Assembly: GCA_913055685.1 (NCBI GenBank)
Contig: CAJXKC010000001.1
Location: 868,001-932,000 of the forward strand
Length of the DNA stretch: 64,000 nucleotides
Reading direction: 5' to 3'
Source: an uncultured Flavobacteriales bacterium
GTDB taxonomy: Bacteria; Bacteroidota; Bacteroidia; Flavobacteriales; Schleiferiaceae
Part shown: piece after piece, positions 488 to 56,987 of the stretch
Numbering within the stretch: the first letter of the stretch is position 1
Layout: every line of letters begins with the position of its first letter
Position numbers and translations under genes: made by a program
The notes under the pieces: model-generated
Databases searched by the model: none
Told to the model about the DNA's origin: nothing
Seen by the model: the letters and a program-made list of their open reading frames with translations, nothing else

Positions 488-518
488 TTGCTAAATTTAA
501 TAGGCACAACTAGTTTTG
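488..518 (+). promoter_or_regulatory. Bacteroidota-type promoter: TTG (488-490) - 20 bp - TAGTTTTG (511-518)
   Basis: Matches the TTG / TAnnTTTG consensus; about 30 nt before ATG 548. The ORF-track start 488 is this TTG. Confidence 0.6.
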
Positions 519-547
519 CGGCCTTATTTAAATTTAATCTAAATAAA

Positions 548-1786
548 ATGAAGACATATAAAACTCTGAAAAGCAGCCTTTTAATCGGGCTATTTATGGT
601 CTCTCTGTCGGCCTGTGAAAAGGAAAACCAGGATAAGTTAAATGAGCCAAGCGTACTTGCTCCTGAAAGCTACAGCTTTAATCGCAATGGCGCTTCTTCG
701 GTCAGCTACAGCGGCCAAACCACCCGATTAGCTATGGGTAAAGAGCTCAATGCAGCATTATTGGACTTTAGTAAAAGTAAGAGTGATTTATTGGCAATGT
801 ATGCCAATCAGGATGCGAGTGGTAATGATGTAGATCCCTTTAGTAACCCCGAGCTTAATGCCTCCGATAAAAGTCTTCGTTCTAAAACGGCGGCATCTTA
901 TGATTACTTTGCCATGAATGCAACCGAAAGTGCTGCCATTCGAGGTCAAATTGATCAATGGATCGAGGCGCAGGTAGATGAAATTTTCCCTTTTGTTAAT
1001 CAAGCTGCCAGTCCGGGTACTGCGGGTCAAGTTGCTGATGGAAGCACCGCGCGTTATGTAAATGCGCAAGGTTTGGAATTTAACCAGGCGGTAGGTAAAT
1101 CTTTAATTGGTGCATTAGCCTTAGACCAAATGCTTAATAATTATTTGAGCGCTTCAGTACTGGATGCGGGCAGCAATCGCGAAGATAATGAGGCGGGTGT
1201 CCTAGCCGAAGGTCAGAATCATACGGTAATGGAGCATAAGTGGGATGAAGCTTATGGTTACCTTTTTGGCGGTGCAGCCGATGGTGCCAAGCCCTTGGCT
1301 ACCTTAGGGGGAGACGATGATTTCTTAAACAAATACTTGGGCCGCTTGGAGGGCGATTCAGATTTTACCGGCGCAGCCGATCGTGTGTTTAATGCCTTTA
1401 AATTAGGTCGAGCTGCAATTGTTGCAGGAGATTATGACTTACGTGATGCTCAGGCCGATATAATTCGTGAGGAACTTTCAGAAATGATCGGTATTCGCGC
1501 TGCCTTCTATTTGCAGGCGGCCAAAAAAGCCTTTGCCAACGGCGAGGATGGTGCGGCTCTGCATGACCTTTCTGAAGCCTATGGTTTTATCTACAGCCTT
1601 CGCTTCACCCATAATGTGGCTACAGATGCTCCCTACTTTGATGCGACTGAAGTAGAAAATATGTTGAGCGATTTAATGGGGGATGGAAACAACGGTTTAT
1701 GGGATGTTAGCGACCAAACCCTGGATGCTATGTCTAATGCCATTGCCGCTCGCTTTAAGTTTGAACTCAATCAGGTTACTAATTAA
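548..1786 (+). CDS. DUF4856-like lipoprotein
   Basis: MKTYKTLKSSLLIGLFMVSLSACEKE lipobox; GYLFGGAADGAKPL, NHTVMEHKWDEAYGY; next to an imelysin-like gene. Start moved from 488 to ATG 548. Confidence 0.75.
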   Translation: MKTYKTLKSSLLIGLFMVSLSACEKENQDKLNEPSVLAPESYSFNRNGASSVSYSGQTTRLAMGKELNAALLDFSKSKSDLLAMYANQDASGNDVDPFSNPELNASDKSLRSKTAASYDYFAMNATESAAIRGQIDQWIEAQVDEIFPFVNQAASPGTAGQVADGSTARYVNAQGLEFNQAVGKSLIGALALDQMLNNYLSASVLDAGSNREDNEAGVLAEGQNHTVMEHKWDEAYGYLFGGAADGAKPLATLGGDDDFLNKYLGRLEGDSDFTGAADRVFNAFKLGRAAIVAGDYDLRDAQADIIREELSEMIGIRAAFYLQAAKKAFANGEDGAALHDLSEAYGFIYSLRFTHNVATDAPYFDATEVENMLSDLMGDGNNGLWDVSDQTLDAMSNAIAARFKFELNQVTN

Positions 1787-1793
1787 TTAGGAC

Positions 1794-2891
1794 ATGTTGC
1801 AAAAGCTTGGATTGGATAAATGGATAATGCTAGGGGCCTTAATGGTCCTTAGCCTATCTTGTGTAGAGGAGGATAAAGGTGATGCTGCAGTTCAGGATAA
1901 TTTCGATCGCCAGGCGCTGCTTAGCTTTTGGGCCGATGAGATTATCATTCCGGCGTATGAAAACTATAGCGAGGAACTAGGGCAATTTGATAGTCTAGTT
2001 CAAAGCTACAGAGCCAAGCAATTGCAGTCCGATTTAATCGCCCTGAAGGCGCAGTTTCAAAAAGCTTATATCGCTTGGCAATGGGTGAGTATTTATGAAA
2101 TTGGACCGGCTGAAAGCCGTGGTCTACGCAATTACAGTAACGTTTATCCTTGTGATACTGCGGAACTCTTAGGATTAGCTAGCTCGGCTAATTACAACCT
2201 TAGTTTACCCTCTACCTTTGATGTGCAGGGCTGGCCGGCTGTAGATTATCTCTTGTTCGGACCCAATGACTTAAGTGTGAGCCCAGAATTGCGTCAGTAT
2301 CTAAGTGATTTGAGTCAGCGGCTCTTAAACCTTAGTCAGGCTACTCTTCAGGACTGGAAGAACTCCTACCGCAATAGCTTTGTCGCAAATGCTGGCTCTT
2401 CGGCCGATGCGAGCGTAAATAAGCTAATTAATGATTTCGTATATCATTATGAGAAGGAATTACGAGCAGGTAAGATTGGCATTCCTGCGGGAGTTTTCTC
2501 GGGTATGCCCCTATCCAATCGCGCGGAAGCCTACTACAATGGTGACCTATCTAAGCAACTGTTTTTGGAATCTCTGGAAGCGCATCGTCGCTTTTTCTCT
2601 GGTTTGTCTTATGACTCCTTAAATAGAGGACCTAGCCTAAAGGCTTACTTGGATTACCTGCAAATTGAGGAGAATGGCACCTTGCTAAGTACCCGCATTG
2701 AGGATCAGTTTGACTTAGTTAAGCAAGTAGCATCGAGCCTAGATTCAAATTTAGCTAAGGCCGCCACCGATCAGACCACTACTATGCTGCAAACCTTTGA
2801 CGCTTTACAGCAAAATGTGATTTGGATGAAGGTCGACATGATGCAAGCTTTAAACGTTCGGGTAGACTACGTTGATGCCGATGGCGATTAG
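1794..2891 (+). CDS. Imelysin-like lipoprotein (peptidase M75 superfamily)
   Basis: Lipobox LSLSCVEE; AYIAWQWVSIYEIGPAESRGLRNYSNVYPCDTAEL, QGWPAVDYLLFGPN, GIPAGVFSG. Confidence 0.85.
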   Translation: MLQKLGLDKWIMLGALMVLSLSCVEEDKGDAAVQDNFDRQALLSFWADEIIIPAYENYSEELGQFDSLVQSYRAKQLQSDLIALKAQFQKAYIAWQWVSIYEIGPAESRGLRNYSNVYPCDTAELLGLASSANYNLSLPSTFDVQGWPAVDYLLFGPNDLSVSPELRQYLSDLSQRLLNLSQATLQDWKNSYRNSFVANAGSSADASVNKLINDFVYHYEKELRAGKIGIPAGVFSGMPLSNRAEAYYNGDLSKQLFLESLEAHRRFFSGLSYDSLNRGPSLKAYLDYLQIEENGTLLSTRIEDQFDLVKQVASSLDSNLAKAATDQTTTMLQTFDALQQNVIWMKVDMMQALNVRVDYVDADGD

Positions 2892-4254
2892 CAAGGAACC
2901 CATAAAGGCTTTTACAAACCAGCAATTGTCCATCGCACCATTGCTGGTTTTTCGTATTGTATTTGGGCTGGTGCTAGCCTATGGCATGTTTCGGTTCTGG
3001 TATTTCGATTGGATCGAGAAACTCTACCTCGAACCACAGTTTCATTTTAGCTATTTGGGTTTTGAATGGGTAAAGCCATTCGGCGATTGGACTTATCTGC
3101 TATTCATTCTCTGCGGAATTAGTGCCATTGGAGTGGCGGTCGGATTTTGGTATCGCATCAGCGCAAGCTTGCTTTTCCTCAGCTTTACCTACATCGAGCT
3201 AATGGATAAAACCACCTATCTCAATCACTACTACTTTGTGTCTATGGTGGCCTTTATCCTAATCTTCCTGCCTGCCGCTAAGGGCCTTTCGGCGGATGCG
3301 GGATGGTCCTTAAAAGGTCTTGAGCAGCGTATTTCGCGAGCTTACTACTTACCACTCTGGGCCTTGGTAAGTCTGGTTTACTTTTATGCGGGCTTGGCAA
3401 AACTCAATTCCGATTGGCTTTTGCATGCTCAGCCTTTAAAGCTGTGGTTGCCGGGAGCCTATGATTTACCTCTTTTAGGACCTTATTTGGAGAAAGAATG
3501 GGTGGCCTTCTTTTTTAGTTGGGCTGGAGCGGCTTTTGATCTTTCCGCACCTTTTTTACTGTGGTTCCGCAAAACCAGACCTTATGCCCTTTTTCTGGTG
3601 GTAGTTTTTCATTTGCTAACGCGCCTGCTATTTCCCATCGGACTATTTCCCCTTATTATGGTCTTGGGAGCATTTACCTTTTTAGATCACCGCTACCACC
3701 AAAGGCTTTTAATCTTTATCGGCAGGATTATCCCTAAGGGCCTTTTTAAAGTTCGCTTCAAGCTTCCGCTGATGGAATTTAAAGCAAAGCAGAGCTTTCA
3801 GTGGTTTTTTGGCTTATTTATAATCTTTCAGTTAGTCTGGCCTTGGCGTTACCTCGCCTATCCTGGAGAACTTTTTTGGCATGAGCAAGGATTTCGTTTT
3901 TCCTGGCGCGTAATGCTAATGGAAAAGGCGGGTTATGCTTCATTCACCATCGTTGATGCCCGCGACAAACAGAGCTTTCGCATCAATAATGCCGATTATT
4001 TAAGCAGTTTTCAGGAAAAACAAATGAGCTTTCAGCCCGACTTCATTTTGGAGTATGCACATTATTTGGCCGAACTGCATCGCCAGAAGTTTGGACACGA
4101 TGATGTAGAGGTTTATGCCGATGTTCAGGTAGCTTTAAATGGCAGGTCTAGTCAGCCTTTTATCGATAAAAGCTGTAATCTTGCCGCCGAAAAAAGAGGC
4201 TATTCCCCTAAAAAATGGATACTTCCTTTCAATGACACGATCTACGGTATATAG
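2872..4254 (+). CDS. HTTM domain / vitamin K-dependent gamma-carboxylase-like membrane protein
   Basis: Multi-TM; ELMDKTTYLNHYYFVSMVAFILIFLPA and C-terminal GFRFSWRVMLMEKAGYASF resemble gamma-carboxylases; overlaps upstream gene by 20 bp. Confidence 0.8.
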   Translation: MMPMAISKEPIKAFTNQQLSIAPLLVFRIVFGLVLAYGMFRFWYFDWIEKLYLEPQFHFSYLGFEWVKPFGDWTYLLFILCGISAIGVAVGFWYRISASLLFLSFTYIELMDKTTYLNHYYFVSMVAFILIFLPAAKGLSADAGWSLKGLEQRISRAYYLPLWALVSLVYFYAGLAKLNSDWLLHAQPLKLWLPGAYDLPLLGPYLEKEWVAFFFSWAGAAFDLSAPFLLWFRKTRPYALFLVVVFHLLTRLLFPIGLFPLIMVLGAFTFLDHRYHQRLLIFIGRIIPKGLFKVRFKLPLMEFKAKQSFQWFFGLFIIFQLVWPWRYLAYPGELFWHEQGFRFSWRVMLMEKAGYASFTIVDARDKQSFRINNADYLSSFQEKQMSFQPDFILEYAHYLAELHRQKFGHDDVEVYADVQVALNGRSSQPFIDKSCNLAAEKRGYSPKKWILPFNDTIYGI

Positions 4255-6676
4255 TATCCTTCTTAGTCTAAGCTGCTTTGCCCTTAAGGCACAGCTTAAC
4301 TACCAAGTGCAAATTTTTTATCCGGATAGCACTCCGGCCGAGGGAGTAGAATTATTTTTTACCGAAGAAGATAAACTAGACTATACCGACAATTATGGGC
4401 GCTTTTCCTTTTACTCTCTGGAGCCCCAGCTTAGCCTCAGTGTATTTAAAGCTAATTACCAAGCTCAAAACCTGGTATTAAAAGCTAATACCGAAAAGCT
4501 GTACAAGATTTATTTGGTGGCCAATTCTGCTCAATTGGAGGAGGTAGAGGTAAAGGGCCAGAAAAAGGATTTTCAACGCCGGACTCTGCGCGCAGTAGAA
4601 GGGACTTCAATTTATGCCGCGAAAAAATCGGAGGTCTTAAAGCTTAAGAGCCTGAACTTGGATTTGGGAGCTAATAATCCCAGGCAGATTTACGCTCAGG
4701 TAACAGGACTTAATATTTACGAAGGAAGTGCCGGTGGGATGCAACTTAACATTGGTGGTCGGGGCTTAGATCCCAACCGCAGCAGTAACTTCAATGTGCG
4801 GCAAAACGGTTACGATATTAGTGCTGATGTGCTTGGTTATCCTGAAAGTTATTATTCGCCACCTCCAGAAGCACTAGCGGAGATTAAAGTGGTTAAAGGC
4901 GCCGCTTCATTACAATATGGAACTCAATTTGGGGGTCTGCTAGAATTTCAATTAAAAGATCCGGTAAGGGACAGCGCACTGGCAATAGAATTACGCCAGA
5001 GTTACGGGAGTTTTAATCGCTTAAACAGCTTTTTAAGTCTTAGTGGAACCAAGGGTAATTGGTCTTATTATACTTATTTCAATTACAAAGAGGGCGCCGC
5101 TTGGCAGGCCAATTCCGCTTATTCTAGTCGTAATGCCTTTTTAGACTTGCGCTATCAAATTGATTCTGAGCAGCAGCTATCCTTTGAATTCTCCTATTTG
5201 AACTATCTAGCCAAGCAGCCAGGTGGGTTAACCGATAGCCAATTTGAGCAAGACCCTAGTCAGAGTCTGCGTGATCGCAATTGGTTTCAAGTAGACTGGC
5301 AATTGTACGCCTTGAAGTATAAGTGGGAGCCCAGCAGTAGGGATTTAATAGAGACACAACTTTTTGCTCTTAATGCCCAGAGAAATGCGCTTGGCTTTAG
5401 AGGTCTGCCGCAAACCTTTAACCTAAACCCGATTAGTACCATCGATCAGAAAGATGCGAAGGGGGAATATCTATATCCACGGGATTTAATAAAAGGTCGC
5501 TTTCAGAACTGGGGACTAGAAAGTCGATGGTTACACCGCTACGGGCAGGCTAATCAGCGTAGGGTTTGGCTTTTAGGTTTAAAATATTATCAAGCACAGA
5601 ATAGCTCCCAACAAGGGGCTGGGTCACGTGGAATGGATGCCAATTTTAAGTTTTACAATCAGCGGTTTCCGGATTACCCTAGTCAGAGTAATTTCCAATT
5701 CCCCAATAGAAATCTAGCCCTATTTTCTGAACATATCTGGTACCTCGGCAATAAGTTTAGCATTACCCCTGGTATACGGGCGGAGTGGATTCGCACCGAA
5801 AGCCAAGGGAATTACCAAAACCTGCTTTTTGACAATGCTGGTAACCTTATTTTTAGGGATACCCTGCGTGATGATCGCGTCTTAGAGCGTAGCTTTATTT
5901 TGGCCGGTATAGGTTTGTCCTATCGATGGCAAGATAATTTGGAAAGCTATTTTAACCTATCGCAGAATTACCGTTCGATTACTTTTAGTGATATCCGTAC
6001 GGTTAATCCCAGCTTTGTAATCGATCCCGACATTAGAGATGAAAAAGGCTTTACTGCCGATTTAGGAACTCGTGGTAAATGGCAGAATCTTCAATTTGAT
6101 GCCAATGTTTTTGGTCTGCTCTATGGCAATCGCATTGGAATTATATTGAACGATCGAGCTCAGCGAGTACGCAAGAACATTGGAACGGCTTTTATTTATG
6201 GCCTCGAAGCCTTTCTCCAACAAGACTGGCAGCTTAGCGAAGACTGGCAGCTATCTTATTTTCTTAATGCCGCCTACACCCGCTCGGTATACCTAAGTAG
6301 TGAAGAGAATAATGTAGTGGGTAAACAAGTGGAATTTATCCCCGAAATTAATTTTAAGCTTGGGCTTGAAGCGACTTACCAATCTTATACCCTCAGTATT
6401 CAAGGTACCTATTTAAGTGAACAGTTTACCGACGTTGAGAATTCGGAAGTTCCTAGTGCTGGTGATATTCGAGAGGGAATTATTGGACCCATTCCTGCTT
6501 ATACCGTTTGGGACTTTAATTTAAGTTACAGAACTCAGCGATTTGAACTGGGCTTTAGTTTAAACAATATGTTTAATGAGGTCTATTTTACGCGAAGGGC
6601 AACGGGATATCCTGGTCCGGGTATAATTACTTCCGATCCCCGCAACTTTAGCCTTTTCGGGGTACTGCGGTTTTAA
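4232..6676 (+). CDS. TonB-dependent receptor (FecA/siderophore-type)
   Basis: Carboxypeptidase-like N-terminus, plug (NIGGRGLDPNRSSNFNVRQNGYDI, VVKGAASLQYGTQFGG), C-terminal beta strand ending FSLFGVLRF; ATG 4232 chosen. Confidence 0.9.
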   Translation: MTRSTVYSILLSLSCFALKAQLNYQVQIFYPDSTPAEGVELFFTEEDKLDYTDNYGRFSFYSLEPQLSLSVFKANYQAQNLVLKANTEKLYKIYLVANSAQLEEVEVKGQKKDFQRRTLRAVEGTSIYAAKKSEVLKLKSLNLDLGANNPRQIYAQVTGLNIYEGSAGGMQLNIGGRGLDPNRSSNFNVRQNGYDISADVLGYPESYYSPPPEALAEIKVVKGAASLQYGTQFGGLLEFQLKDPVRDSALAIELRQSYGSFNRLNSFLSLSGTKGNWSYYTYFNYKEGAAWQANSAYSSRNAFLDLRYQIDSEQQLSFEFSYLNYLAKQPGGLTDSQFEQDPSQSLRDRNWFQVDWQLYALKYKWEPSSRDLIETQLFALNAQRNALGFRGLPQTFNLNPISTIDQKDAKGEYLYPRDLIKGRFQNWGLESRWLHRYGQANQRRVWLLGLKYYQAQNSSQQGAGSRGMDANFKFYNQRFPDYPSQSNFQFPNRNLALFSEHIWYLGNKFSITPGIRAEWIRTESQGNYQNLLFDNAGNLIFRDTLRDDRVLERSFILAGIGLSYRWQDNLESYFNLSQNYRSITFSDIRTVNPSFVIDPDIRDEKGFTADLGTRGKWQNLQFDANVFGLLYGNRIGIILNDRAQRVRKNIGTAFIYGLEAFLQQDWQLSEDWQLSYFLNAAYTRSVYLSSEENNVVGKQVEFIPEINFKLGLEATYQSYTLSIQGTYLSEQFTDVENSEVPSAGDIREGIIGPIPAYTVWDFNLSYRTQRFELGFSLNNMFNEVYFTRRATGYPGPGIITSDPRNFSLFGVLRF

Positions 6677-6678
6677 GC

Positions 6679-6706
6679 AAAAAAAAAGACCGCCGGAGCG
6701 GTCTTA
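6679..6706 (-). terminator. Intrinsic terminator (possibly bidirectional)
   Basis: AAGACCGC-CGGA-GCGGTCTT with a T-tract on the - strand. Confidence 0.75.
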
Positions 6707-6724: not shown

Positions 6725-7207
6725 TTATAAAAAACTCCAGAATACTTTATCTACTTTCCAATTACCATTTTCACGTACGAGGGTAATATGCTCTTTCCAA
6801 CGTTGTCCATTGGCGCCAGTGATTAATTCAGCTGAAGCTACCTCACCGTTAATGGCAGTGATGGTAATTTCATTGTTCTGGGCATCAGGAGCCACAACCT
6901 CTTGTCCTACCATTAATCCTTGGATGTCATCCAATTTTTGAACGGGGGTTAGCGATCCATCGCGGTTTAATCCTTGATTGGTGAAGTTGTTGCTTAATAC
7001 TTCGCGCATTTCTTCGAAATCCCCTTCATGGAAGTTTTCGATATAGGTGCGTACCGAAGTTTCAACTTCAGAGTTAGGTCCGCCTTCCTCTTCAAAGCTA
7101 ATAGTGTAGATAGGAAGTTTTGTGGGGCCACCTTCATTGGGGTTTGTTCCATTGGCGGTAGCGCTAAATGAAGCCGATAAGGCTAATGCAATTACTAAAG
7201 ATTTCAT
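6725..7207 (-). CDS. Secreted NTF2-like / putative lumazine-binding protein, paralog 1
   Basis: Signal peptide; VRTYIENFHEGDFEEMREVLSNNFTNQGLNRDGSL...RWKEHITLVRENGNWKVDKVFW. Confidence 0.7.
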   Translation of the reverse strand: MKSLVIALALSASFSATANGTNPNEGGPTKLPIYTISFEEEGGPNSEVETSVRTYIENFHEGDFEEMREVLSNNFTNQGLNRDGSLTPVQKLDDIQGLMVGQEVVAPDAQNNEITITAINGEVASAELITGANGQRWKEHITLVRENGNWKVDKVFWSFL

Positions 7208-7393: not shown

Positions 7394-7807
7394 TTAAAAA
7401 CTCCAAACGATTTTTTTAATCTTCCAAGTTCCTCGAACCTTCTCTAGAAGAATTTCTTCTGTCCAGCGTGAGTTCTCGGGTCCGGTTACTAAACGAACAG
7501 AGGCAAACTCCTCTTGTAGGGAAATGACTTCAATTTCATTGTTCTGTTCCGAAACAGGGGTACTTTCCTGTTGTTTCATTAGATTTTTAAGTCCGCGTGC
7601 GTCGAGCGGCTGACTTAAACTACCGTCGCGGTTAATACCTTGATTTTGAAAGTCATTATGCAAGACCTCCTTCATTGAGGAATAGTCATTGGAAAGGTAA
7701 CTTTCGATGTAGGTTTTAACGGTTTCGCGAACTACGGTTTCGGGACCATTGGCCATAGCGGTAAAGCTAAAGCCTGCCAAGAGCATGGCTAATACTTTGA
7801 TTTTCAT
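7394..7807 (-). CDS. Secreted NTF2-like / putative lumazine-binding protein, paralog 2
   Basis: VKTYIESYLSNDYSSMKEVLHNDFQNQGINRDGSL...RWTEEILLEKVRGTWKIKKIVWSF aligns with the neighbour. Confidence 0.7.
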   Translation of the reverse strand: MKIKVLAMLLAGFSFTAMANGPETVVRETVKTYIESYLSNDYSSMKEVLHNDFQNQGINRDGSLSQPLDARGLKNLMKQQESTPVSEQNNEIEVISLQEEFASVRLVTGPENSRWTEEILLEKVRGTWKIKKIVWSF

Positions 7808-10096: not shown

Positions 10097-11362
10097 ATGA
10101 AAAAGTTGGCCTATTTAGCTGCAGTTTGTTCGCTGCTTATGGCTTGTGATCCTCAGCCTCCCAAAGCGGCACTTGCTAATTTAGAACCTAGCCTAGATCT
10201 TCCTCAAGGCTTTGTGGCCGAAGTTTTTGCCGATTCTTTGGGTTACGGCAGACATTTAGCGAGTAGACCCAATGGCGATTTGTATTTGCGATTATCTGAG
10301 CCAAAGAAGGGTTTAAGTATTGTCGCTTTACGCGATAGTGACTCTAATGGAATACCCGAGGAAATTGAGTACTTCGAAGAGTTAGAAGGTGGAACCGGAG
10401 TCAAGTTCCATCAAGGGTACCTCTATTTTTCGACCAATTCTCAAGTCTTCCGCCGTCGTTTTATGGGCAATGAATTAGTGCCAAGCGGGGAGCGTGAACT
10501 CATCTTAAGCCTAGCCGAACAAAATCAGCATGCAGCTAAACCTCTGGCCTTTGATGGAAAGGGGAATATGTTTGTTACCATTGGCGCACCTTCCAATGCC
10601 TGTCAGGACCCCGATCGTAAACCCGGAGTTCCCGGTCAGGACCCATGTCCCTTACTCGAACAATCGGGTGGTATTTGGAAGTTTAGTGATTCAAATTTAG
10701 ATCAACATTTTGAAGATGGCGAACGCTATGCTACAGGAATACGCCACGCCGTAGGGATTCACTACAATCACAAACAAGACAAACTCTACGCCATGCAACA
10801 TGGGCGTGATCAATTGCATGAATTTTGGCCCGAATATTACACTCAGAAGGAGAGCGCCGAGCTTCCGGCTGAAGAGTTTCTAAGAGTGGAAGAGGGAAGT
10901 GATTTTGGTTGGCCCTATTGCTATTATGATCATAAACGCAAAGTGAAACTTCTAAACCCTGAATATGGAGGAAATGCCGATTCTACCGGCCGGTGTTCAA
11001 CTAAGGATTACCCCCTGATGGGCTTTCCGGGTCACTGGGCACCCAATGCTTTAGCGTTTTACCACAGTGAGCAATTTCCAATTTCTTATCGTGATGGAGC
11101 CTTTATTGCCTTTCATGGATCATGGAACCGCGCACCTTTTCCCCAGCAAGGCTACCGGGTGGTATTTGTTCCTTTTAGTGGTGATGATCCCATAAGCGGT
11201 TATCAGAGTTTTGCCACCGGTTTTTCAGGCGCACCGGAGATTGATTATCCTGGTGATGCGGTTTATCGTCCCTGCGGCCTGGCGGTTGGTCCCAGGGGGA
11301 ATTTGTTTATCAGCGATTCTAAAGTGGGGCGAATTTGGCGCATTAGCTACCAGGCTAATTAG
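10097..11362 (+). CDS. PQQ-dependent sugar (sorbosone-type) dehydrogenase lipoprotein
   Basis: Lipobox LLMACDPQ; FVAEVFADSLGYGRHLASRPNGDLYLRL..., GLAVGPRGNLFISDSKVGRIWRI. Confidence 0.8.
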   Translation: MKKLAYLAAVCSLLMACDPQPPKAALANLEPSLDLPQGFVAEVFADSLGYGRHLASRPNGDLYLRLSEPKKGLSIVALRDSDSNGIPEEIEYFEELEGGTGVKFHQGYLYFSTNSQVFRRRFMGNELVPSGERELILSLAEQNQHAAKPLAFDGKGNMFVTIGAPSNACQDPDRKPGVPGQDPCPLLEQSGGIWKFSDSNLDQHFEDGERYATGIRHAVGIHYNHKQDKLYAMQHGRDQLHEFWPEYYTQKESAELPAEEFLRVEEGSDFGWPYCYYDHKRKVKLLNPEYGGNADSTGRCSTKDYPLMGFPGHWAPNALAFYHSEQFPISYRDGAFIAFHGSWNRAPFPQQGYRVVFVPFSGDDPISGYQSFATGFSGAPEIDYPGDAVYRPCGLAVGPRGNLFISDSKVGRIWRISYQAN

Positions 11363-12614
11363 TTAAACTGATCAAATAAATCAGGCTAAAGCCGAATAGA
11401 AAAACAAGGCCCAAATAACTAAGGCCTTGCAGTCTTTTCCCGGGTCGGAATGCCCTTGGAAGTTGTAGCACTAAATAAAAATTGGCGCTTGCGATTAATG
11501 GCGCAACTAAAAAGCTTATCGCCGTGGCTAAGTCTACTAGTGAACCGAATTTCTGACCAAAGGAATAGATTAAAGCTAAGCCTCCTAAGCCCAATAAAAG
11601 TAGCATCGAACGATAGCCTTTCCCCGTCTCGCCTAGCTTAAAGGTGCGGCTCAAATATAGGCTTGCCAGCTTCTCGCCTACACGCGCATAGCCATCAAAT
11701 ACCGCGATGCAGGTACCGAGCATAATGCTAAAGGCAGATGCCGCAATTATGGGTCTGCTCCAGGTCCCTATATTGGAAGTATAAAGTTCAATAATGCCAC
11801 CCGCAAACTGGGAGGCAGAACCTTCGAGGCTATTTGACGTACCGTATAAAAGGTAGGCCCCTAAGATCATGAAGATGGGAGCCAGCACCGCCGATAGAAT
11901 ATATCCAAATCTAAACTCGCGGATAATGCTCTTAAAATCGAGCTTTTTTTCCTTGGCTTGGGCTATAGTCCATAGACTATTCCATGCCGATAGATCCACC
12001 GCGGTAGGCATCCACCCCATCAAAGCAATTAGAAAGGCAAAAGAAGGACTGCTAAACTCAAAGACCTCTGAATTAAACCAAGGGATTGGACTGCTGCTGG
12101 GGCCTTTTATTAGGGCTGCAATAAAGGCAATAATGGTTGACAAGAGTAGCACCGATCCAATGATCTTAATAAGTCTGCCTAAGCCTTGATACCGACCCCA
12201 GAATAAAACCAATACCGACAGGCTAAAAAGGATAATATTGGTTTGAAAAAGAGTGAGGTAGGACTCTAGACCGAATAATTGGTGCATGAAACCAGCAGTT
12301 ACGGCGCCTACCGCTGCGGTCACAAAAAACATGGTGCCCAAGGTTATCAAAAGGAAGATAGCTAGAGCCCAGCGGCCAATTTTCGCATAACCGTCTATTA
12401 AGGACTCACCGCGCGCCGCCGCATAGCGCGAACCATATTCGAAAAATGGATATTTAAAAAGGTTTGCCAAGATAATTGCCCAAAGCAATCCGTAGCCATA
12501 ATCGGCTCCCGCGCGGGTACTTTGCACTAAATGGCTTACGCCGATGGCGGTACTTGCGAAAATAAGACCAGGCCCAAGGCTGGCGATAAATTTTTGGATG
12601 GAAGTCTTTTTCAT
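11355..12614 (-). CDS. Nramp-family-related transporter lacking the canonical DPGN motif
   Basis: SLGPGLIFASTAIGVSHLVQSTRAGADYGYGLLWAIILAN...; multi-TM; overlaps upstream convergent gene by 8 bp. Confidence 0.8.
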   Translation of the reverse strand: MKKTSIQKFIASLGPGLIFASTAIGVSHLVQSTRAGADYGYGLLWAIILANLFKYPFFEYGSRYAAARGESLIDGYAKIGRWALAIFLLITLGTMFFVTAAVGAVTAGFMHQLFGLESYLTLFQTNIILFSLSVLVLFWGRYQGLGRLIKIIGSVLLLSTIIAFIAALIKGPSSSPIPWFNSEVFEFSSPSFAFLIALMGWMPTAVDLSAWNSLWTIAQAKEKKLDFKSIIREFRFGYILSAVLAPIFMILGAYLLYGTSNSLEGSASQFAGGIIELYTSNIGTWSRPIIAASAFSIMLGTCIAVFDGYARVGEKLASLYLSRTFKLGETGKGYRSMLLLLGLGGLALIYSFGQKFGSLVDLATAISFLVAPLIASANFYLVLQLPRAFRPGKRLQGLSYLGLVFLFGFSLIYLISLTN

Positions 12615-53087: not shown

Positions 53088-54011
53088 ATGCCCTCCATTC
53101 AAGAACGGATTCTCAAGCGGATTGAAGCTCAGTTACCGAAAGGAGAATCTTTAGCCAAAAGTCTAGAGCGCTTTTTAGAAGTTGACTCTAGTACTGCTCG
53201 TCGAAAATTACATGGTGACTCCAATTTAAGTTTAGAACAACTGGAGTCATTAATAGCCGCCGATCCATCTTTATTGGAAGAATTGCTGCCCATAGCCATG
53301 CGCGACAATAATTTTCTAGGCACCTACAGCCATATCCATAGTTATAATGATGTCGCCCAATATCTAAGATCGATTATTAAGCGCTTTGAATTAGCGGTAA
53401 AGGCTGAGGCAAAACTCCAATACATTGCCCGTGATTTACCGCTGTTTTTCTTCTTATCAGACCGCGATCTGGCCTCTTTCAAATTTTCCTTGTGGACAGG
53501 TGAATTGCAAAAGGGAAATCTTATCCAGCTTTGTGATGAGCTATATCAGCTTTGCCAAGAAGCCCATCAATTGTACTTAAGTTTATCTACCGTAGAAATA
53601 TGGAGTCGTGAGGTAACGCGCAATCAGCTGCAGCAATTAAATTGGCATTGGGGAATGACCTACCTGGACCCAAAAATTAAGGAGGGACTCTTGGAAGTGA
53701 TTAAGGATAAAGTAGCTACCTATAAGGAGTGGGCCTATTCGGGTCTTAAAGATGGTAAGGGGAAATTGCAATTGTATTTTTCCGAATACATCGTTATGAA
53801 CAATGGCGGTTTACTGTCTACCGATAGGTTTAAAGTCCTGATGTCGGCCATCAGTAATGTGAACTTTGTAAGCTATACCAATCCCAGTCTTTGTGAAGGT
53901 TTTTTAAAAGAATTTGAAGATCAGCAAAACGCCTCCATATTAGTCTCGCGATCCAATGCCTTAGAGCGCGAGAAGTCTTTTAGTAAATTAATTGAGGACT
54001 TAAACAGCTAG
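53088..54011 (+). CDS. Hypothetical 307-aa protein with possible N-terminal HTH
   Basis: SLAKSLERFLEVDSSTARRKLHGDSNLSLEQLESLIAADPSLLEELL resembles a Cro/CI-type helical segment; remainder unknown. Confidence 0.55.
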   Translation: MPSIQERILKRIEAQLPKGESLAKSLERFLEVDSSTARRKLHGDSNLSLEQLESLIAADPSLLEELLPIAMRDNNFLGTYSHIHSYNDVAQYLRSIIKRFELAVKAEAKLQYIARDLPLFFFLSDRDLASFKFSLWTGELQKGNLIQLCDELYQLCQEAHQLYLSLSTVEIWSREVTRNQLQQLNWHWGMTYLDPKIKEGLLEVIKDKVATYKEWAYSGLKDGKGKLQLYFSEYIVMNNGGLLSTDRFKVLMSAISNVNFVSYTNPSLCEGFLKEFEDQQNASILVSRSNALEREKSFSKLIEDLNS

Positions 54012-55063
54012 GATGGTTCCTTGCTGTCGCGCAGGGCATTCCAACCCTGAGCTTGCAGAGGAATACTAGCGCCATCGCGGGTGATTAGATTAGTACCGGC
54101 ATTGGCATCGGTCATGTGTCCGATTACGGTCAAATGTGGATTTCCTTTAATCTTATCGTGCTCCTCAATTGGGATAGTGAATAGTAATTCATAGTCCTCT
54201 CCGCCGTTAAGGGCAATGGTAGAAGCATTTAATTTAAACTCCTCGCATAGTTTAAAAACCTGCGGATCGATGGGTATCTTTTCCTCGTAAATGGCCACGC
54301 CAAGTTTGCTTTGCTTGGAAAGATGTAAGGCCTCCGAGCTAAGTCCGTCTGAGATGTCGATCATCGCCGTCGGGTGAACCTCTAATTTGGCTAAAAGCTC
54401 TGGAATATCCTTACGAGCTTCAGGTTTCAATTGTCGTTCTAGCACATACTCATTGCCTCCTAGTTGGGGCTGTACTTCGGGATTGCCTTGAAATACTTGC
54501 TTTTCTCTTTCCAGTACTTGTAAGCCCATGTAAGCGCCGCCTAAATCTCCCGATACCACCAATAGGTCATTTTCTTTAGCTCCACTGCGTTCGATGATTT
54601 CATTTTCATCGGCCACACCAATGGCAGTAATGCTTAGTATCAAACCCGAATATGATGAAGTCGTATCACCTCCAACTAAGTCTACTTCATACACCTCGCA
54701 GGCGTGACGAATACCTTCGTAAATCTTGTCTAAATACTCGATTCCAAAGCGATTGCTAATGGCAAGGTTTACGGTAATCTGGGTGGGACGCCCGCCCATG
54801 GCATAGATATCCGATAAATTTACCACCACTGCCTTATAGCCTAGATGCTGGGGCGGAACATAGCTTAAATCGAAGTGTACCCCTTCCACCAACATGTCGG
54901 TGCTAACAAGGGTGCGACCACTTAAGTGTTCTAGGATAGCGGCATCGTCTCCAATTCCTTTAATAGTGCTTCCCTGGGTTAAAGGAAAATCTCTGGTTAA
55001 TCTCTCAATTAAACCGAACTCGCCAATATTCTCTAAGCTGGTAAATTTTTCTTCTTCTGCCAT
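54008..55063 (-). CDS. thiL: Thiamine-monophosphate kinase
   Basis: IGEFGLIERLTRDF; IKGIGDDAAIL; STDMLVEGVHFDLSYVPPQHLGYKAVVVNLSDIYAMGG; LNGGEDYELLFT. Confidence 0.97.
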   Translation of the reverse strand: MAEEEKFTSLENIGEFGLIERLTRDFPLTQGSTIKGIGDDAAILEHLSGRTLVSTDMLVEGVHFDLSYVPPQHLGYKAVVVNLSDIYAMGGRPTQITVNLAISNRFGIEYLDKIYEGIRHACEVYEVDLVGGDTTSSYSGLILSITAIGVADENEIIERSGAKENDLLVVSGDLGGAYMGLQVLEREKQVFQGNPEVQPQLGGNEYVLERQLKPEARKDIPELLAKLEVHPTAMIDISDGLSSEALHLSKQSKLGVAIYEEKIPIDPQVFKLCEEFKLNASTIALNGGEDYELLFTIPIEEHDKIKGNPHLTVIGHMTDANAGTNLITRDGASIPLQAQGWNALRDSKEPS

Positions 55064-55175: not shown

Positions 55176-55204
55176 CATTAATTTTGACTAAATCTAAATA
55201 GCTT

Positions 55205-55544: not shown

Positions 55545-56987
55545 ATGAAGACGGAAGAAAGTTACTTAGAAGAGGTTACGGCCTCGGAATACAAATACGG
55601 TTTCTACACCAATATCGAGTCGGATAAAGTTCCTCCCGGATTAAATGAGGAGGTTATCCGCATTATTTCGGCCAAGAAAAATGAGCCCGAATGGATGTTG
55701 GAGTGGCGCTTGGATGCTTTCCGGAAATTTCAGAAAATGACCGAGCCCAAATGGCCAAATGTGACCTACCCAGAGCCAGACCTTCAGGCTATTTCCTATT
55801 ATGCGGCGCCTAAGAAGAAGAAAGAACTGGAAAGCCTTGATGAGGTTGATCCCGAACTTTTAAAAACCTTCGAAAAGCTCGGAATTTCATTAGACGAGCA
55901 AAAGCGCTTAACCGGAGTAGCCATGGATGTGGTAGTAGACTCGGTATCGGTAGCAACCACTTTTAAGGCCAAGCTAAGAGAATTGGGTATCATCTTCTGC
56001 TCCATTTCGGAAGCAATTCAGGAGCATCCCGAATTAGTGAAGAAATACTTGGGAACGGTAGTACCTAAGTCTGATAACTATTATGCAGCTTTAAATTCGG
56101 CGGTATTTACCGATGGTTCTTTCTGTTACATTCCCAAAGGAGTGCGTTGTCCGATGGAATTAAGCACCTACTTCCGTATTAATGAAGCGGGAACGGGTCA
56201 GTTTGAGCGCACCTTGGTAATTGCAGATGAGGCTTCCTATGTTTCCTATTTAGAAGGCTGTACCGCCCCCATGCGTGATGAGAATCAATTGCATGCCGCG
56301 GTAGTAGAATTGGTGGCCCTCGATGATGCTGAGATTAAATACTCAACTGTACAAAACTGGTATCCAGGCGATAAAGAAGGGAAAGGAGGGGTTTACAACT
56401 TTGTAACCAAACGCGGTCTTTGTGAGCGCAATGCTAAAATCTCTTGGACACAGGTTGAGACCGGTTCGGCCGTAACTTGGAAATACCCTTCATGTATTCT
56501 TAAAGGCGAAAATTCGGTAGGTGAATTCTATTCCGTTGCCGTTACCAATAACTATCAACAAGCCGATACTGGTACTAAGATGATTCACTTGGGTAAAAAC
56601 ACCAAGAGTACCATTATTAGTAAAGGGATTTGCGCGGGTAAATCGAATGGTTCCTACCGAGGCTTGGTTAAAATCGGCCCGCGAGCCGAAAATGCACGCA
56701 ACTTCTCACAGTGCGATTCGCTCTTAATGGGTGATGGATGTGGTTCGCATACCTTCCCCTATATCGAAACACAAAACAAGAGTGCGAAAATTGAGCATGA
56801 GGCGACTACCTCAAAAATTGGTGAAGACCAAATTTTCTATTGCCAGCAACGTGGTATTGGCGAGGAAGAGGCGATTGCCCTTATTGTAAACGGATATTGT
56901 AAAGATGTACTGAACCAATTGCCGATGGAGTTTGCGGTAGAAGCGCAAAAATTATTGGCTATTAGTCTAGAAGGATCAGTAGGATAA
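55545..56987 (+). CDS. sufB: Fe-S cluster assembly protein SufB
   Basis: [54 protein letters not shown]. Confidence 0.98.

What the first reader, a model, noticed from the sequence alone, without database searches (positions are those of the whole stretch)
548..6676. Candidate carboxylation-coupled metal-uptake operon: DUF4856 lipoprotein, imelysin-like lipoprotein, gamma-carboxylase-like HTTM protein, TonB receptor
Seen: four same-strand genes with gaps or overlaps of 8 bp or less, or short overlaps (-20, -23), behind one clear promoter. The HTTM protein is not just a membrane fragment. It keeps an LMDKTTYLNHYYF segment resembling the catalytic-lysine region of vitamin K-dependent gamma-carboxylases (LLDKTSWNNHSY type) and a C-terminal FSWRVMLMEKAG region. 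Inference: a menaquinone-using carboxylase could modify Glu residues on the two partner lipoproteins, or on the receptor, to make metal ligands for TonB-dependent uptake. Imelysin/M75 proteins are linked to iron uptake in other bacteria. The gamma-carboxylation link is my hypothesis.
Basis: partly seen in the sequence, partly recalled or inferred. Interest (0 to 1): 0.7.

Follow-up and report, generated by a model that had tools for sequence, protein, structure and literature searches.

The report
Iron-regulated operon with vitamin-K-type carboxylase
This is an iron-starvation operon, kept in the same gene order across many bacteria of the phylum Bacteroidota, that carries a close relative of the human vitamin K-dependent blood-clotting carboxylase with its catalytic residues intact, so it gives a testable candidate role for this enzyme family in bacteria.

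Summary
The four genes are real and in the stated places: DUF4856 lipoprotein, imelysin lipoprotein, carboxylase, TonB receptor. The third protein is a genuine gamma-glutamyl carboxylase (GGCX) homologue. It has both the HTTM and VKGC lumenal domains (E 5e-69 and 6e-53), and its predicted fold matches human GGCX (TM 0.81). LMDKTTYLNHYYF carries the N159/H160 equivalents (N115, H116). K218, H160 and N159 are conserved in 131 of 131 operon copies surveyed. The order DUF4856-imelysin-carboxylase-TonB is found in 116 surveyed Bacteroidota loci, and these carboxylases form one clade. A Fur-box-like palindrome (16/19) directly precedes the first gene. Such boxes precede 100 of 116 operons, but 0 of 35 stand-alone carboxylases and 65 of 1650 other genes. 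A published RNA-seq study of Riemerella anatipestifer lists apparently the same four genes as iron- and Fur-controlled. Iron acquisition is therefore well supported. Gamma-carboxylation of an operon protein is plausible but unproven: two VKGC-less operons keep their conserved Glu residues, no Glu-rich substrate region was found, the human second propeptide-binding lobe is missing, and no VKOR was found.

The parts
488..518 (+). Putative Bacteroidetes-type promoter, TTG-N20-TAGTTTTG
   Evidence: Exact motif match, but 1.1 matches expected by chance in the window; inference from position
524..546 (+). Putative Fur box: 11-bp inverted repeat with 1-nt spacer, ending 1 bp before the start codon; 19-bp core 526-544 matches ATTTAGAATTATTCTAAAT at 16 of 19
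   Evidence: same kind of box precedes 100 of 116 homologous operons
548..1786 (+). DUF4856 lipoprotein (412 aa), weakly related to FEA1-related lipoproteins
   Evidence: Pfam PF16148 E 5e-132; NCBIfam NF038033 E 9e-6, below cut-off
1794..2891 (+). Imelysin-like lipoprotein (365 aa) of the IPPA type, GWPAVD in place of GxHxxE, ends in Asp-Gly-Asp
   Evidence: Pfam PF09375 E 2e-26; profile match to 3pf0 and 3n8u; AF2 model pLDDT 91
2880..2888 (+). Codons of the invariant C-terminal D-G-D of the imelysin
   Evidence: 129 of 129 operon copies; also in 3pf0
2881..4254 (+). GGCX-family carboxylase homologue (457 aa): HTTM membrane domain plus VKGC lumenal domain
3223..3228 (+). Codons of N115-H116 (human GGCX N159, H160, Glu-binding pocket)
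   Evidence: Alignment, 131 of 131 operon copies; roles from PMC12589487
3400..3402 (+). Codon of K174 (human GGCX K218, catalytic base)
   Evidence: Alignment, 131 of 131 operon and 32 of 32 stand-alone copies
4232..6676 (+). TonB-dependent outer-membrane receptor (814 aa)
   Evidence: Pfam PF00593 E 2e-28, PF07715 E 3e-8; best NCBIfam match FecA, below cut-off
6686..6705 (.). Hairpin after the receptor gene; T-run only on the - strand
   Evidence: consensus match only

Best explanation
A Fur-repressed iron-acquisition operon, kept as a unit in Bacteroidota. Under iron starvation it makes two membrane-anchored lipoproteins (DUF4856 and an IPPA-type imelysin), a TonB-dependent outer-membrane receptor, and an inner-membrane GGCX-family enzyme whose active site should face the periplasm. 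The enzyme most likely uses menaquinol, O2 and CO2 to carboxylate Glu side chains on an exported operon protein during its passage through the periplasm, most probably the imelysin or the receptor, to make stronger metal-binding sites. Shown here: family membership, intact catalytic residues, conserved linkage, Fur-box conservation. Shown in the literature for what appears to be the same operon in Riemerella: iron and Fur regulation. Inferred: periplasmic orientation, carboxylase activity, identity of the substrate, and that iron is the transported metal.
For: GGCX homology by sequence (E 2e-30) and fold (every PDB match with E below 1e-3 is human GGCX, TM 0.81). K218, H160, N159, W223, F286, F294 and F299 equivalents invariant in 131 operon copies. 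Full gene order in 116 surveyed VKGC loci; VKGC and TonB genes overlap (median -23 bp) and the median imelysin-VKGC gap is 6 bp. In a phylum sample of 395 genomes 55 of 60 DUF4856 genomes also hold VKGC, 12.9 expected, P 3e-39. Operon VKGCs form one clade at 100/99 support. Fur-like box in 100/116 operons versus 0/35 stand-alone VKGC and 65/1650 other genes. In R. anatipestifer, RAYM_09779-09794 (TonB receptor, vitamin K-dependent gamma-carboxylase, imelysin, hypothetical) rise by log2 ratios of 2.1-3.1 on iron limitation and 1.4-1.9 in the fur mutant with iron (PMC5609570). menB, a menaquinone gene, is in the genome. In some relatives an LruB-type imelysin and a di-haem oxidoreductase, the EfeB/PA4371 type, sit inside the operon.
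Against: Two family members (L048, L049) keep DUF4856-imelysin-TonB without any VKGC match in the genome and show no loss of conserved Glu: 44 of 46 kept versus 812 of 961 for other residues. No Gla-like Glu-rich segment was seen; post-lipobox residues are Asp-rich. Human K217 is Ala and R436 is Gln here, and the protein ends at about human residue 504, so the second propeptide-binding lobe is missing. No VKOR match in this genome, so quinone epoxide recycling is unexplained. The iron response persists in the R. anatipestifer fur mutant, so Fur is not its only control.
Confidence: 0.5

Rival explanations
1. The enzyme is a GGCX relative that keeps menaquinol oxygenation or epoxidation chemistry but does not carboxylate protein Glu; it serves iron uptake by another quinone- and O2-dependent reaction.
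For: No VKOR match in the genome; K217 and R436 substituted and the second propeptide-binding lobe missing; no Glu loss in VKGC-less operons. From memory, the Leptospira homologue was reported to have altered activity and no protein carboxylation.
Against: The Glu-pocket residues N159 and H160 are invariant along with K218; in human GGCX H160 matters for Glu carboxylation (PMC12589487).
Confidence: 0.2
2. The enzyme carboxylates a substrate encoded outside the operon, for example a small exported peptide or metallophore that the TonB receptor imports.
For: No conserved operon Glu tracks with the enzyme; stand-alone VKGC paralogues lie beside housekeeping genes, so substrates can be unlinked.
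Against: Tight gene order and shared regulation with imelysin and receptor.
Confidence: 0.15
3. The enzyme is a quality-control or assembly factor for the lipoproteins or receptor, without catalysis, and is dispensable for iron uptake in itself.
For: VKGC-less operons exist.
Against: Catalytic residues are invariant in 131 copies although the proteins share only about 41-63% identity with the window's.
Confidence: 0.07

Closest known systems
Vertebrate vitamin K-dependent gamma-glutamyl carboxylase (GGCX)
   Same: HTTM plus lumenal domain, fold, catalytic Lys, Asn159/His160 and most vitamin K pocket residues
   Different: 457 aa against 758; lacks the part after human residue 504, which holds the second lobe of the propeptide site; K217 is Ala, M401 is Val, R436 is Gln; no VKOR match in the genome
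Fur-regulated imelysin clusters (P. aeruginosa PA4370-4373, EfeUOB), PMC3143127
   Same: Imelysin-type proteins in iron-regulated operons; IPPA-type imelysin; in some relatives the di-haem oxidoreductase is inserted too
   Different: Those clusters as described contain no carboxylase; here a TonB receptor, DUF4856 protein and GGCX homologue are present, and no FTR1 permease gene is in the four-gene unit
Riemerella anatipestifer RAYM_09779-09794
   Same: Apparently the same operon: TonB receptor, vitamin K-dependent gamma-carboxylase, imelysin, hypothetical protein, iron- and Fur-regulated (PMC5609570)
Stand-alone Bacteroidota VKGC paralogues
   Same: Same domains and catalytic residues (32 of 32)
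   Different: Separate branches of the tree, beside ribF/serS and other genes, mostly human-like N158, N290 and M401, no Fur box

Membership tests
GGCX / vitamin K-dependent carboxylase | HTTM domain and VKGC lumenal domain in one protein | tested here: met
   PF05090 E 5.5e-69 and PF22777 E 5.8e-53
GGCX / vitamin K-dependent carboxylase | Catalytic lysine (human K218) | tested here: met
   K174; 131/131 operon copies
GGCX / vitamin K-dependent carboxylase | Glu-pocket residues N159 and H160 | tested here: met
   N115, H116
GGCX / vitamin K-dependent carboxylase | Vitamin K pocket residues W223, F286, F294, F299 | tested here: met
   Invariant in 131 operon copies
GGCX / vitamin K-dependent carboxylase | GGCX fold | tested here: met
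   AF2 model pLDDT 86.5; Foldseek E 1.6e-19, TM 0.81 to 9wfc
GGCX / vitamin K-dependent carboxylase | K217 and the complete two-lobed propeptide-binding domain of animal GGCX (substrate recognition, not catalysis) | tested here: not met
   K217 is Ala; homology stops at about human residue 504. This bears on animal-type substrate recognition, so it is a homologue, not an animal-type GGCX
GGCX / vitamin K-dependent carboxylase | Carboxylation of protein Glu with vitamin K hydroquinone | not testable with these tools
   Needs enzyme assay or mass spectrometry
Vitamin K cycle | VKOR-family reductase in the same genome | tested here: not met
   No PF07884 match in this genome; 3 of 88 family genomes have one
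Imelysin (M75) | Pfam imelysin domain | tested here: met
   PF09375 E 2.2e-26
Imelysin (M75) | GxHxxE motif of ICMP and IrpA | tested here: not met
   GWPAVD here; His to Pro as in the IPPA family, Glu to Asp
Fur-regulated iron-uptake operon | Fur box at the promoter | tested here: met
   16/19 match at 526-544; 100/116 operons; DNA binding itself not tested
Fur-regulated iron-uptake operon | Induction by iron limitation | not testable with these tools
   Literature for an apparently homologous operon in R. anatipestifer only
Fur-regulated iron-uptake operon | Iron transport by the receptor | not testable with these tools
   Substrate of the TonB receptor unknown

The most novel reading that the evidence does not exclude
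Bacteria of the phylum Bacteroidota carry out menaquinol-dependent gamma-carboxylation of glutamate on an imelysin or TonB-receptor partner, made only under iron starvation, giving Gla a role in bacterial metal uptake and suggesting an early setting for vitamin K-dependent carboxylation.
Probability: 0.42. Interest if true: 0.9.

Novelty: new variant of a known kind. Interest (0 to 1): 0.68.

Why it matters
The role of bacterial vitamin K carboxylase relatives appears to be open: the literature searches here found no paper that gives one a function. This operon supplies a defined set of partners, a regulator, a growth condition (iron limitation) and named catalytic residues, in culturable genera such as Flavobacterium, Polaribacter, Tenacibaculum and Zobellia. 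If an operon protein carries Gla, it would be a bacterial use of a modification known from animal clotting and bone proteins, and would tie quinone, O2 and CO2 chemistry to metal uptake.

Tried and rejected
Catalytic lysine in LMDKTTYLNHYYF: rejected; that K aligns with human K154 and is not strictly conserved. Substrate Glu by correlated loss: compared conserved Glu in VKGC-bearing and VKGC-less operons, no signal (only two related genomes). E220, K346 and the C-terminal DGD of the imelysin as Gla-linked features: rejected, because solved IPPA 3pf0 aligns with E, K and DGD there too; E245 is specific to the operon type among the imelysins compared here but also matches a Glu in PIBO. Glu-rich lipoprotein N-termini: not found, Asp-rich instead, as in the lipoprotein export signals of this phylum. 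VKOR partner: none found in the genome. Viral copies: none. The sigma-70 scan found no promoter before the operon, as expected for this phylum. Foldseek of the imelysin model could not be run, queue full. Stand-alone VKGC neighbours are mostly housekeeping genes and gave no substrate clue.

Full report
Observation. The four genes are present in the stated places and match DUF4856, imelysin (M75), HTTM plus VKGC lumenal domain, and TonB receptor. The carboxylase gene overlaps the imelysin gene by 11 bp from its ATG (20 bp from an upstream TTG) and the receptor gene overlaps the carboxylase gene by 23 bp. The genome holds one PF05090 (HTTM) match, this one.

Identity of the third protein. Both halves of GGCX are present: the membrane domain and the lumenal domain. 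PF22777, the lumenal domain, rings in none of 14 control genomes, whereas HTTM alone rings in three. phmmer to human GGCX chains gives E 2e-30 over residues 12-449. The AlphaFold2 model (pLDDT 86.5, pTM 0.87) matches only GGCX entries at E below 1e-3, best E 1.6e-19 with TM 0.81. Confidence is low in residues 112-114 and 330-344, which lie beside active-site residues in the sequence.

Catalytic residues. Roles are from the 2025 cryo-EM study PMC12589487: K218 is the catalytic base, N159/H160/Y395 hold the Glu side chain, K217 couples substrate binding. In the window K218 is K174, N159 is N115, H160 is H116 and Y395 is F338; K217 is A173. Over 131 operon-type sequences K218, N159, H160, W223, F286, F294 and F299 are invariant, Y395 is Tyr (88) or Phe (43), K217 is Ala in 130, M401 is Val in all and R436 is Gln in 123. 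Homology stops at about human residue 504, so the second lobe of the human propeptide site has no counterpart.

Neighbourhood. The 88 held genomes of the same family were searched: VKGC in 29 and DUF4856 in 23, the two lying 2-5 kb apart in nearly all cases where they share a contig. In a phylum sample of 395 genomes, VKGC is in 85 and DUF4856 in 60, with 55 in common against 12.9 expected, P 3e-39. In the fetched loci the full order DUF4856-imelysin-VKGC-TonB occurs 116 times; 13 more show imelysin-VKGC-TonB with no recognised DUF4856 gene in the adjoining place, three of these at a contig end. These counts are partly shaped by the query: 80 of the loci were found with an operon-type VKGC alignment, so the unbiased figures are the genome samples. 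The operon VKGCs form one supported clade (100/99), with one further member (L186, Roseivirga) that lies directly after DUF4856; stand-alone VKGCs fall in other branches. Long branches make the place of human GGCX unsure.

Regulation. The palindrome TTATTTAAATTTAATCTAAATAA (524-546) ends one base before the start codon. Its 19-bp core matches the R. anatipestifer Fur consensus ATTTAGAATTATTCTAAAT (PMC5609570) at 16 of 19; two matches of that quality occur in the window against 0.10 expected. A match of at least 15/19 lies upstream of 100 of 116 operons, both VKGC-less operons, 0 of 35 stand-alone VKGC genes, and 65 of 1650 other genes nearby. A test with scrambled palindromes gave a mean of 3 and a maximum of 34 against 105 observed. 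In R. anatipestifer the loci RAYM_09779, 09784, 09789 and 09794 (TonB receptor, gamma-carboxylase, imelysin, hypothetical) are among the genes listed as Fur-regulated; log2 ratios are 2.11, 2.64, 3.07 and 2.41 on iron limitation. I could not fetch that sequence, so identity with this operon rests on names and order. The iron response remains in the fur mutant, and the paper's Fur-box table does not list this operon, so Fur control there is partial evidence.

Partners. The imelysin is of the IPPA type: the His of GxHxxE is Pro, and here the Glu is Asp (GWPAVD). It has invariant N213, E220, E245, K346 and C-terminal DGD; E220, K346 and DGD align with the same residues in IPPA 3pf0, so they are not tied to the carboxylase. 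Its model is confident (pLDDT 91.4) with a low-confidence tail. Relatives L057 and L059 carry an LruB-type imelysin, a di-haem oxidoreductase and a further imelysin inside the operon, recalling the known Fur-regulated PA4370-4373 cluster described in PMC3143127.

Is there Gla? Two related genomes (L048, L049) keep DUF4856-imelysin-TonB with no VKGC match in the genome. If strictly conserved Glu residues served only as Gla, they should drift there. They do not: 44 of 46 kept, against 812 of 961 for other conserved residues. The test has little power (two related genomes) and would miss sites that vary among species. The exported N-termini are Asp-rich. Menaquinone synthesis is indicated by menB, but no VKOR homologue was found, so any epoxide formed would need another fate. 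These points leave carboxylation plausible, not shown.

Verdict. An iron-regulated, conserved operon with a genuine GGCX-family enzyme: well supported. Carboxylation of an operon protein: my leading explanation at about even odds. The gene set has been listed before as Fur-regulated; what is added here is the conservation of the catalytic residues, the phylum-wide linkage and the Fur-box conservation.

Noticed in passing
1794-2891 (codons 2880-2888) and homologues: The imelysin ends in a free Asp-Gly-Asp in all 129 operon copies, in VKGC-less operons and in solved IPPA 3pf0, on a tail of low model confidence. Possibly a docking or metal-binding tail; unexplained.
   Followed up: partly
L210-L222 and others: A second, stand-alone VKGC paralogue, more like human GGCX at N158, N290 and M401, sits beside ribF and serS in members of the same order, without a Fur box.
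   Followed up: partly
L261, 6907-7632 and L264, 7220-7936: A Glu-rich DUF4382-like lipoprotein lies directly upstream of a stand-alone VKGC; a candidate substrate for that paralogue.
   Followed up: no
L048 and L049: Natural VKGC absence: DUF4856-imelysin-TonB kept, with about 30 bp or less between the imelysin and receptor genes.
   Followed up: yes
L202, 2-982: In one contig the gene before VKGC is not an imelysin but an Asp-rich repeat protein, cut by the contig end.
   Followed up: no
55181-55199 (-): A second Fur-like box (16/19) between an AIR-synthase-like gene (54008-55063, -) and sufB (55545-56987, +).
   Followed up: partly
6725-7207 and 7394-7807 (-): Two related secreted proteins of the Lumazine_bd_2 family in tandem after the operon.
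   Followed up: partly
11355-12614 (-): Nramp-like metal transporter, slightly below the Pfam cut-off.
   Followed up: no
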